The notes beneath the pieces are model-generated. The model made no database searches. It had not been told where the DNA came from and saw only the letters and a program-made list of their open reading frames with translations. 64,000 bases of DNA. Source: Streptomyces sp. V2I9. GTDB lineage: Bacteria > Actinomycetota > Actinomycetes > Streptomycetales > Streptomycetaceae. Shown here piece by piece: positions 24,750 through 27,080 of the stretch (within the stretch, counting starts at the first letter, position 1; each line of letters starts with the position of its first letter). The stretch covers positions 5,842,626 to 5,906,625 of the forward strand of contig NZ_JAUSZJ010000002.1 in assembly GCF_030817475.1 (NCBI RefSeq). The letters are read 5' to 3'. The position numbers were made by a program, and so were the translations under genes.

Positions 24750-24858
24750 CAGGCGGGTAGGCGCGGACGGGAGCGGTCCGGCGGGCGGCCGTCGTGGCAC
24801 ATCCCGCCCGGCCGCTCTCCTGACGGCCCGTGGACGGCGGGGTCCGTCCGTCGCTGAT

Positions 24859-26171
24859 GCTCCTATTGCTGTCAAGCGGCTTGAAGCCAGTCGCGGTAGG
24901 AGTGGGCGAGGTCGTCGTCCCTGCTGAGTCCTCGTTCAAGTCTGGAGATAGTGGTTGGCCAGACTCCGAAGTGCTGGGCGACGGCGGTGAGGGTGACGTT
25001 CCTGGCCTGCCGCATGGGCCGCAGATCGGCTATGCCCGGGATGGTGACCGTGCTGGTGAGGCAGCGGAACATCTCCCGGGCGATGGCCCGTTTCAGCATC
25101 CGGATGATTTCCTTCTTCGTCCTTCCGGCAGCGGTCTGTCGCGCAACGTAGGCGCGGGTCCGGGCGTCGCCGGACATGCGGACCAGGGCGATGCGGTAGA
25201 GGGCTGCGTTGGCCGCTCGGTCGCCGCCCCGGGAGAGTCGGTGCCGGTTGGTTCTGCCGCTGGAAGCAGGGACCGGGGCAGCCCCGCACAGCGCTGCGAA
25301 GGACGCCTCGGTCCGCATCCGTTCGGGGTTGCCGCCCGCGGTGATCAGCAGTCGTGCGGCGGTGTCGGGGCCGACACCGTAGGCGGCCCGCAGGCCCGGG
25401 TTGTGGGTGGTGACCTCGGCATCCAGGGCCCGCGTCAGTGTTTCGTGCTCGGCGGTGAGCTCCTTGACCCGGCGGGCGAGGCTCTTCAACGCGGTCAGCA
25501 CGGCGATGTGGAGGGCGTCACCGGCCGGCCGCAGCCGGGCCAGGGCCTCGGTGCGATCGGTGCCCTTGAGCTGCCCGTACTTCGCGCGGATGGCTTCCGG
25601 GGCAGTGATGAGGACGTTGCCGATCTGATTGAGCGCGGCGGTGCGGGCCTTGACGGCGGAGCGGGCTGCGTTGTGCAGGGCACGTATCCCGGCGACCGTG
25701 TCGTCCTTGGGGGAACTGGAGGCTCTGCCGGACAGGGCGGCGCGGGCGGCGGCGTAGGCGTCGATCGGGTCGGACTTGCCGGTGCGGCGCCGTTCGGCCT
25801 TGTCGGGGCGGTTGACCTCGACAACCTGGTGCCCGTGGGAGCGGGCGGTCCGCGTGAAACCGGCCCCGTAGGACGAGGTGCCTTCCACCCCGATCGAGAC
25901 CACACGCCCGTGCGCGGCCAGGAAGGCCAGGGCTGCCGCGTATCCAGCGGCGGTGGTGGAGAACTCCGCATCCGCGAGATGACCGCCGTTTTCGCTGATC
26001 ACAGCGACGTGGACGGTGTCAGCGTGGGAATCGGCCCCACCGAACACATCCTGGTCCACGGTGTCCGCCGCAACCTCTGATGCCATGCTGATACTGCCTT
26101 CCCAGCCGAAGGTGGGCGCCGGCCGGGTGGCGCAGACAGGACATTGAAGGGGCTTCTGACCAAGCTCCTAT
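24859..26171 (-). mobile_element. IS110-family insertion sequence (ends provisional)
   Basis: An intact IS110-type transposase is flanked by the direct repeat GCTCCTAT at 24859-24866 and 26164-26171, a spacing of 1305 bp, within the size range of the family. IS110 elements lack long terminal inverted repeats, and their ends share only a short core, so this repeat may mark the boundaries. Taken literally it leaves only ~80 bp of non-coding left end, short for a bridge RNA; the true left end may extend to about 26.3 kb. TCAAGC-G-GCTTGA is a small inverted repeat at the transposase stop codon. Confidence 0.6.
24872..26086 (-). CDS. IS110-family transposase (DEDD recombinase)
   Basis: This 404-residue RNA-guided-type recombinase is complete. 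The N-terminal RuvC-like DEDD domain begins VFGGADSHADTVHVAV with D19, then SIGVEGTSSYG and GKSDPIDAYAAARAAL. The C-terminal Tnp domain has ALCGAAPVPASSGR with the serine expected to attack DNA, and RAANAALYRIAL. The last ~45 residues (LTAVAQHFGVWPTTISRLERG) form an XRE-like helix-turn-helix, which is common in streptomycete members. No stop codon or frameshift, so it may be active. It sits between the HEPN gene's terminator and the exonuclease promoter and appears to disrupt no gene. Confidence 0.95.
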   Translation of the reverse strand: MASEVAADTVDQDVFGGADSHADTVHVAVISENGGHLADAEFSTTAAGYAAALAFLAAHGRVVSIGVEGTSSYGAGFTRTARSHGHQVVEVNRPDKAERRRTGKSDPIDAYAAARAALSGRASSSPKDDTVAGIRALHNAARSAVKARTAALNQIGNVLITAPEAIRAKYGQLKGTDRTEALARLRPAGDALHIAVLTALKSLARRVKELTAEHETLTRALDAEVTTHNPGLRAAYGVGPDTAARLLITAGGNPERMRTEASFAALCGAAPVPASSGRTNRHRLSRGGDRAANAALYRIALVRMSGDARTRAYVARQTAAGRTKKEIIRMLKRAIAREMFRCLTSTVTIPGIADLRPMRQARNVTLTAVAQHFGVWPTTISRLERGLSRDDDLAHSYRDWLQAA

Positions 26172-26366
26172 CAGGTCATGTTCCGCCCGGCCGGAGCCAT
26201 GAGAACGAGCTCCGGCAGCCGGACAGAACAGCGCGAAGACAGCCCAGCAGGGCGTCAGTCAGTGCCCGAGTCACGACCGCCGGAACCCGAGTATCAGCAT
26301 CAATGTCAGTGCTGCGTGCGAGGGTGGTCGTCACGTGGGGAAAGCACCACAGACGGAGGTAACGGG
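26087..26366 (-). ncRNA. Candidate bridge-RNA region of the IS110 element
   Basis: In IS110 elements the non-coding end upstream of the transposase encodes the bridge RNA that pairs with target and donor DNA. These 280 bases upstream of the transposase start (minus strand) contain a clear 8-bp hairpin (26190-26197 with 26209-26216, 11-base loop) and a second GCGCC/GGCGC stem near 26117-26134. I could not identify the target- and donor-binding loops. Part of the region must also contain the exonuclease promoter and its RBS. Confidence 0.35.
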
Positions 26367-27080
26367 ATGAGCTGGCTCAGCGGGACGTTGATGGCGTTCG
26401 ATCTGGAGACGACGGGGACGGACGTCGAGTCCGACCGCATCGTCACGGCCGCGGTCGTCCGGCTGGAGGCGGACGGCTCCGTGTCCGGGGAGCGGACCTG
26501 GCTGCTGAACCCCGGCGTGGCCATACCCGAGCAGGCGTCGGCCATCCACGGCATCTCGACCGAACGGGCCCGCGAGCACGGGGTCCCGGCCGCATCCGCG
26601 ATCGAGGAGATCGCCGGAGCGGTCGCCGACGGGCTGCGCTCGGGGACCCCGCTGGTGGTGATGAACGCGCGCTACGACCTGTCCCTGCTCGACCGCGAGT
26701 GCCGGCGGTACGGGGTCGCGTCGGTCAGCGAACGGCTGGGCGCGGCGCCCTCACCCGTCATCGACCCGCTGGTCCTCGACAAGCACGTGGACAAGTACCG
26801 GAGGGGGAAGAGGGCCCTCCACGCCCTGTGTGCCCACTACGGGGTCCCGCTCGACGACGCGCACGACGCGCGGGCGGACGCCGTCGCCGCCGCGCGGGTG
26901 GTGCGGAGCATGGGGGAGAAGCACCAGCCGGTCGGGGTGATGCCCCTGGAGGACCTGCACGCCCTCCAGACGCAGGCGGCGGCCGAGCAGTCGCTGTCCC
27001 TCCAGGCCTACCTGCGTCGCACCTCGGACCCGGCGGCGGTCGTCGAACCGGCCTGGCCGCTCATCCCCCGGATGCGCTGA
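26367..27080 (+). CDS. DnaQ-like 3'-5' exonuclease (DEDDh)
   Basis: This 237-residue protein has the exonuclease/DnaQ fold. ExoI is LMAFDLETTGTD with D12 and E14; ExoII is VVMNARYDLSLLDRE; ExoIII is AHDARADAVAAARV, giving the His and last Asp of the DEDDh group. It is predicted to degrade single-stranded DNA or RNA from the 3' end. The chosen ATG has CGGAGGTAACGGG before it. It is a stand-alone exonuclease without a polymerase domain, and its ~60-residue C-terminal extension is of unknown role. The IS110 element lies directly upstream and may have separated it from its original upstream context. Confidence 0.9.
   Translation: MSWLSGTLMAFDLETTGTDVESDRIVTAAVVRLEADGSVSGERTWLLNPGVAIPEQASAIHGISTERAREHGVPAASAIEEIAGAVADGLRSGTPLVVMNARYDLSLLDRECRRYGVASVSERLGAAPSPVIDPLVLDKHVDKYRRGKRALHALCAHYGVPLDDAHDARADAVAAARVVRSMGEKHQPVGVMPLEDLHALQTQAAAEQSLSLQAYLRRTSDPAAVVEPAWPLIPRMR

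What the first reader, a model, noticed from the sequence alone, without database searches (positions are those of the whole stretch)
26087..26366. Candidate bridge RNA of an intact IS110 element
The transposase is intact and the upstream non-coding region contains an 8-bp GC-rich hairpin (26190-26216) and a second small stem. IS110 recombinases are known to use a bridge RNA from this position.
Basis: partly seen in the sequence, partly recalled or inferred. Interest (0 to 1): 0.55.

Follow-up and report, generated by a model that had tools for sequence, protein, structure and literature searches.

The report
Jumping gene aimed at repair promoters
The spot holds the guide RNA of a bacterial jumping gene, and the guide appears to spell out the switch that turns on DNA-repair genes in Streptomyces, so the element settles beside those switches while leaving their key parts standing.

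Summary
It encodes a canonical IS110 bridge RNA (scaffold 26131-26292, minus strand): target-binding loop, linker hairpin, donor-binding loop. The structure is kept in 98.1% of pair cells across 23 distinct relatives. Both target guides co-vary with flanking target DNA; both donor guides match the element's own ends.

The new part is the target. The left guide spells the -26 box (TGTCAGTG) of the PafBC/RecA-NDp DNA-damage promoter. Of 70 insertion flanks of this clade, 46 have TAnnnT exactly 8 nt downstream and none at any other spacing from 2 to 22. Downstream genes include uvrB, AlkZ-like, dnaN-like and helicase genes. The window copy sits at a conserved promoter of a DnaQ-like exonuclease gene; insertion leaves -26 and -10 intact. 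A sister clade with the same RNA scaffold but other guides shows 0 of 21. My paper searches found nothing linking IS110 to PafBC. Expression and activity are untested.

The parts
24857..26305 (-). IS110-group element, 1449 bp counting one copy of the 2-bp core (cores at 24855-24856 and 26304-26305)
   Evidence: common ends of four copies and relatives, length, empty site
24872..26086 (-). IS110 recombinase, 404 aa
   Evidence: Pfam; match to IS621 and ISCro4 chains of solved structure
24920..25024 (-). C-terminal helix-turn-helix of the recombinase (residues 355-389, HTH_31 below Pfam cut-off), absent from the sister clade
26087..26303 (-). left end (LE), non-coding
26131..26292 (-). bridge-RNA scaffold
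   Evidence: model R1 hit, 192.2 bits; structure test
26258..26265 (-). left target guide GCACTGAC
   Evidence: co-variation with target, 0 of 2000 shuffles
26229..26237 (-). right target guide TTCGCGCTG (pairs with CAGCG of the right flank)
   Evidence: co-variation with target, 0 of 5000 shuffles
26164..26171 (-). donor guide ATAGGAGC, same as the right end AATAGGAGCAT
   Evidence: alignment and right ends
26142..26147 (-). donor guide TCAATG, complement of the left end CATTGA
   Evidence: alignment; both sides changed in L029, L030, L048
24870..24875 (-). -35 (TTGACA) of the predicted circle-junction promoter, overlapping the stop codon
26296..26301 (-). -10 (GATGCT) of the predicted circle-junction promoter
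26304..26311 (+). host target: -26 box TGTCAGTG, its first two bases being the core
   Evidence: consensus printed in PMC5656591
26320..26325 (+). host target: -10 box GAGGGT
   Evidence: conserved as GAnnGT in relatives without the element
26367..27080 (+). host gene behind the target promoter: RNase_T/DnaQ-like exonuclease
   Evidence: Pfam

Best explanation
The left end of this IS110-group element encodes a bridge RNA. The excised circle joins right end to left end and so forms a housekeeping-type promoter (TTGACn-17/18 nt-nATnnT) that transcribes the RNA and the recombinase. The donor loop pairs with the two ends of the element. The target loop pairs with host DNA reading GCACTGA-CA-GCG, which is the -26 box TGTCAGTG of a DNA-damage (PafBC/RecA-NDp) promoter seen from the other strand, plus a few bases upstream of it. 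The recombinase inserts the circle at the CA/TG core, at the upstream edge of the -26 box, with the left end against the promoter. The -26 box, the 8-nt spacer, the -10 box and the host gene stay intact, so the insertion costs the host little. Shown by sequence: element ends, RNA structure, guide-target and guide-donor matches, identity of the target, conservation of the target promoter at empty sites. Inferred: transcription of the RNA, RNA-guided recombination, PafBC control of these promoters in Streptomyces, and working of the promoter after insertion.
For: Structure: 98.1% of cells paired, 21 cells with two-sided changes, 0 of 500 shuffles for these measures. Left guide: mean exact run 3.78 against 1.67 shuffled, 0 of 2000, 60 flanks. 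Right guide: 28 pairs, 0 of 5000. Donor guides. Target: TAnnnT at 8 nt in 46 of 70 flanks, at other spacings from 2 to 22 in 0; for flanks starting TGTCAGTG 30 of 43 against 1463 of 6196 genomic sites in 42 genomes, 21 of 33 after merging similar flanks. Start codon 5-9 nt behind the -10 in 33 of 62. 15 of 55 scanned downstream proteins are repair, replication or helicase families. The motif in this genome precedes recA, uvrB and others, 7 of 10 scanned. Empty site and conserved promoter. Sister clade with other guides: 0 of 21. Junction promoter in 23 of 23 (the search pattern itself asked for TTGA).
Against: No expression or activity data. 24 of 70 flanks lack a full TAnnnT, the window's own among them (GAGGGT), though A and T at positions 2 and 6 occur in 64 of 70 each. 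One of four copies here (L013) has no -10 and lies at the 5' end of a gene on the other strand (my reading). IS256-like coding sequence is a target of one variant (L029, L030). Shuffles ignore relatedness. Some flanks are relics or share ancestry.
Confidence: 0.83

Rival explanations
1. Guide only, promoter by survivorship: the RNA reads only a short sequence (TGTCRGTG and a few neighbours), insertions land wherever it occurs, and selection removes all but the harmless ones at promoters. This is a sub-version of the best explanation: same RNA, but no special preference for promoters.
For: Insertions without a -10 exist (24 of 70 lack TAnnnT); guide-target pairing needs only bases next to the core.
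Against: Seven copies that are at least 99.6% identical within their genomes, so recent, already show nAnnnT in 6 of 7, while this genome has 201 TGTCRGTGC sites. Small numbers.
Confidence: 0.55
2. Recognition beyond the guide: the extra C-terminal helix-turn-helix of this clade, or the open state of active promoters, helps the recombinase to choose promoters.
For: The domain is present in the promoter-targeting clade and absent in the sister clade; the clade is monophyletic at 100/100; recent copies are already at promoters.
Against: One clade, one origin: the two traits may be linked by chance. Guides alone explain the -26 box. The IS256-targeting variant keeps the domain.
Confidence: 0.25
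3. The conserved left-end RNA is only a leader that controls translation of the transposase.
For: It lies directly upstream of the recombinase start; control of ISPpu9 transposase by small RNAs and leader structure is reported (PMC8450116, only the start of its abstract seen in a listing).
Against: Loop sequences change in step with flanking target DNA and with element ends, which a leader does not explain. Transposase-less copies L074 (246 bp) and L053 (363 bp) keep both ends.
Confidence: 0.04
4. The TGTCAGTG at the left end belongs to the element, which carries a mobile outward promoter.
For: Most copies carry it at the same place (68 of 73 start TGTC[AG]G).
Against: Relatives without the element carry TGTCAGTG-N8-GAnnGT at the same place (21 of 29 loci examined); spacer and -10 differ at every site.
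Confidence: 0.02

Closest known systems
IS621 and the IS110-group bridge RNA (PMC11208160; sections 5, 6, 12 and passages read)
   Same: Bridge RNA in the left end; two loops, the first for target and the second for donor; 5' side pairs with the bottom strand, 3' side with the top strand; 2-bp core; promoter made at the circle junction.
   Different: Target is a stress-regulon promoter box, not REP elements; core is CA; the recombinase has an extra C-terminal helix-turn-helix.
seekRNA of IS1111 and IS110 elements (PMC11187229; section 13 and passages read)
   Same: RNA from the non-coding end directs target choice; each IS has its own target.
   Different: The passages read name no transcription-factor promoter as a target.
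PafBC / RecA-NDp DNA-damage promoters of Actinomycetes (PMC5656591, PMC6789036, PMC11804915, PMC5087735; passages read)
   Same: The target DNA matches tTGTCRgtg-8 nt-TannnT, and the motif precedes recA, uvrB and other repair genes in this genome.
   Different: It is the host target, not part of the element; PafBC dependence was not tested here.

Membership tests
IS110 group of the IS110 family | Recombinase with DEDD RuvC-like domain (PF01548) and PF02371 domain | tested here: met
   both above Pfam cut-off; catalytic residues not checked one by one
IS110 group of the IS110 family | Long left end, short right end | tested here: met
   LE 217 nt, RE about 15 nt (coordinates read)
IS110 group of the IS110 family | Sequence-specific insertion around a 2-bp core shared by both ends | tested here: met
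Bridge RNA | Structured RNA in the left end with two internal loops | tested here: met
Bridge RNA | First loop complementary to target, co-varying with it | tested here: met
Bridge RNA | Second loop complementary to donor ends | tested here: met
   read from the alignment, no shuffle test
Bridge RNA | Transcribed, bound by the recombinase, needed for recombination | not testable with these tools
   needs small-RNA sequencing, binding and recombination assays
Bridge RNA | Promoter formed at the circle junction | tested here: met
   sequence only, 23 of 23 junctions; the right end was found with a pattern that asked for TTGA
Target = PafBC/RecA-NDp promoter | tTGTCRgtg - 8 nt - TannnT upstream of DNA-damage genes | tested here: met
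   46 of 70 exact; recA, uvrB and others behind the motif
Target = PafBC/RecA-NDp promoter | Bound by PafBC and induced by DNA damage | not testable with these tools
   needs ChIP-seq and RNA-seq

The most novel reading that the evidence does not exclude
A clade of IS110 elements has joined two recognition devices, a bridge RNA that reads the -26 box and an extra C-terminal helix-turn-helix on the recombinase, to home to active DNA-damage promoters. Insertion spares the promoter, so the element rides on the host's repair regulon, and damage-opened promoters may couple transposition to stress.
Probability: 0.2. Interest if true: 0.85.

Novelty: new variant of a known kind. Interest (0 to 1): 0.66.

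Why it matters
IS110 elements are known to choose targets by RNA, but what their guides are selected to find is mostly unknown. Here a guide appears tuned to a promoter box that recurs in many copies in every one of 42 Streptomyces genomes checked. That would explain how one element finds safe sites in many hosts. It is a testable case of RNA-guided homing to a regulon, offers natural guide variants with matching targets for bridge-RNA work, and gives a way to list DNA-damage promoters by reading insertion sites.

Tried and rejected
Rfam: no match in the window. The first look for TAnnnT used the wrong index range; recounted. The first right-guide script had a pattern that matched nothing; repaired, where some right ends may be picked wrongly (L018, L022, L026, L033, L035); I kept them, which works against the result. 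One search printed nothing (pattern too strict); replaced. The idea that the helix-turn-helix was captured from a host gene: a 37-bp match recurs in many Streptomyces genomes, but the one looked at lies in a LacI-type regulator and looks like motif similarity; dropped. Excess of left-end over right-end remnants (against 81): suggestive, but only two candidates per genome were scored, so not counted as evidence.

Rows dropped: of 73 distinct flanks, 3 (L071, L072, L075) were left out of the 70; their alignment starts at query base 16 and may be shifted, and L072 and L075 would fit the motif if shifted by one base. Of 62 downstream ORFs, 7 were not scanned by Pfam (L013, L018, L028, L029, L030, L036, L082; judged doubtful or off the point). 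Of 15 motif sites of this genome one is the L012 insertion; 14 were fetched, 13 had a coding-like ORF, 10 proteins were scanned. Of 29 loci looked at for the empty site, 24 printed a candidate: 21 with TGTCAGTG, one with TGTCAGTA, two wrong picks. Sister-clade flanks: 21 that my pattern could place; the rest unresolved.

Full report
What was claimed.

The element. The window lies in a Streptomyces genome (genus judged from matching plasmid records, and same-genus hits). The transposase 24872-26086 (minus) is intact, with both IS110 domains, and matches the IS621 and ISCro4 recombinases of solved structure. Four copies occur in the genome, at least 99.6% identical over aligned parts; one (L012) has a 147-bp internal deletion. 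All end at the same two points. Core-to-core length is 1449. The window insertion has an empty counterpart in another Streptomyces genome, aligned over the whole 600-base joined flank at 87% identity.

The RNA. Twenty-five left ends (23 distinct) were aligned. The consensus fold has a long target stem-loop with an apical hairpin, a linker hairpin and a donor stem-loop. Pair counting: 98.1% of cells paired, 6 pairs with two-sided changes, 21 such cells; 0 of 500 shuffles reached the observed percentage, two-sided cells or covariation score; 18 of 500 reached the number of pairs and 24 of 500 the number of pair types. A covariance model built from the alignment scores the window copy, which is in the alignment, at 192.2 bits at 26131-26292. 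It finds matches in 46 of 150 family genomes and in 11 of 17 genera.

The guides. The left side of the target loop carries GCACTGAC, the sequence found outside the left end. In other copies the two change together: GGCA with GGCA in 18 flanks, GGGT with GGGT in 12, GCCA with GCCA in 7 and so on; mean exact run outward from CTGA 3.78 against 1.67 shuffled, 0 of 2000, 60 flanks. The right side of the loop pairs with the other flank: 28 pairs, mean run with wobble 3.14 against 1.61, 0 of 5000. The donor loop carries ATAGGAGC, as in the right end, and TCAATG, the complement of the left end CATTGA; L029 and L030 change both partners. Shuffles ignore relatedness, so these tests are optimistic; the agreement of several guide classes with their own target classes is the sturdier point.

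The target. In promoter orientation the left flank reads TGTCAGTG. [quoted passage not shown] I collected 73 distinct left flanks; 68 start TGTC[AG]G, and 70 were used. TAnnnT follows at exactly 8 nt in 46 of 70 and at no other spacing from 2 to 22. For flanks starting TGTCAGTG the share is 30 of 43, against 1463 of 6196 such sites in 42 genomes; 21 of 33 after merging similar flanks. In 33 of 62 cases with a coding-like ORF the start codon lies 5-9 nt behind the -10, as in leaderless transcripts. Of 55 downstream proteins scanned, 15 are repair, replication or helicase families: UvrB (2), UvrA-like (1), AlkZ-like (3), DnaN-like (2), polymerase A (1), DEAD helicases (4), SNF2-type (1) and the window's exonuclease (1). 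As a check on the motif, TGTCAGTG-N8-TAnnnT has 15 sites in this genome and 0 for the reversed pattern; the genes behind it include recA, uvrB, UDG, AlkZ-like, dnaN-like, DEAD and exo/endonuclease families, 7 of 10 proteins scanned.

The window site. The exonuclease gene behind the insertion (26367-27080) has a conserved promoter in relatives: TGTCAGTG-N8-GAnnGT in 21 of 29 loci examined. The element sits on its upstream edge and leaves it whole.

A natural control. A sister group (recombinases about 50% identical) uses the same RNA scaffold with other guides. In G496 seven copies with the guide CAACTGAC all lie at CAACTGACA. None of 21 placeable sister flanks has TAnnnT at 8 nt. In a tree of 31 recombinases the promoter-targeting clade is one side of a branch with 100/100 support, and only its members carry the C-terminal helix-turn-helix (intact members). 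Whether that domain helps to find promoters is unknown.

Mechanism. Joining the ends puts TTGACn and nATnnT 17-18 nt apart in 23 of 23 junctions (the right end was found with a pattern asking for TTGA, so that half is not independent). This would drive the RNA and the recombinase, as reported for IS621 (PMC11208160 section 5). Pairing of both loops then directs insertion at the CA core. Because the left end faces the -26 box, box, spacer and -10 are kept. Two explanations of the promoter bias remain: removal of harmful insertions by selection, or recognition beyond the guide. Seven very recent copies in two genomes, six of them with nAnnnT at the -10 position, hint at the second but do not settle it.

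Known or new. RNA and recombinase are a standard IS110-group set. A guide tuned to a stress-regulon promoter is not described in what I could search: IS110 with PafBC, 0 papers; insertion sequence with RecA-NDp, 0; IS110 with promoter, target site, Streptomyces, insertion sequence and DNA damage, 0; wider searches listed nothing to the point. The library holds open-licence papers only and no bioRxiv preprints.

Limits. No expression, binding or transposition data. PafBC control in Streptomyces is inferred from the motif and the genes behind it. Of the 73 flanks 23 belong to alignments that reach the far end of the element and 50 to shorter ones, many of them relics; TAnnnT occurs in 14 of 23 and 32 of 50.

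Noticed in passing
L074 (L112), L053 (L113), L085: Non-autonomous copies: 246, 363 and 682 bp core to core, with both ends and at least part of the bridge RNA but without most of the transposase gene; L074 and L085 lie at uvrB promoters.
   Followed up: partly
L021, L022, L026, L033, L035: Longer elements (1748-1984 bp core to core) with an extra small ORF between the transposase and the right end: DUF7660 in L021, weak DUF1877 in L033, shared unknown protein in L026 and L035.
   Followed up: partly
L029, L030, L031: A variant with the guide ATCACTGAC lies inside what looks like an IS256-type transposase gene (my reading of the flanks, not searched): a retargeted guide.
   Followed up: partly
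L086, L092, L094 and other loci: Many short left-end remnants (43-157 bp) still abut the promoter box, apparently more than right-end remnants; detection may be biased.
   Followed up: partly
24920-25024: The C-terminal helix-turn-helix of the recombinase occurs in the promoter-targeting clade and is missing from the sister clade.
   Followed up: partly
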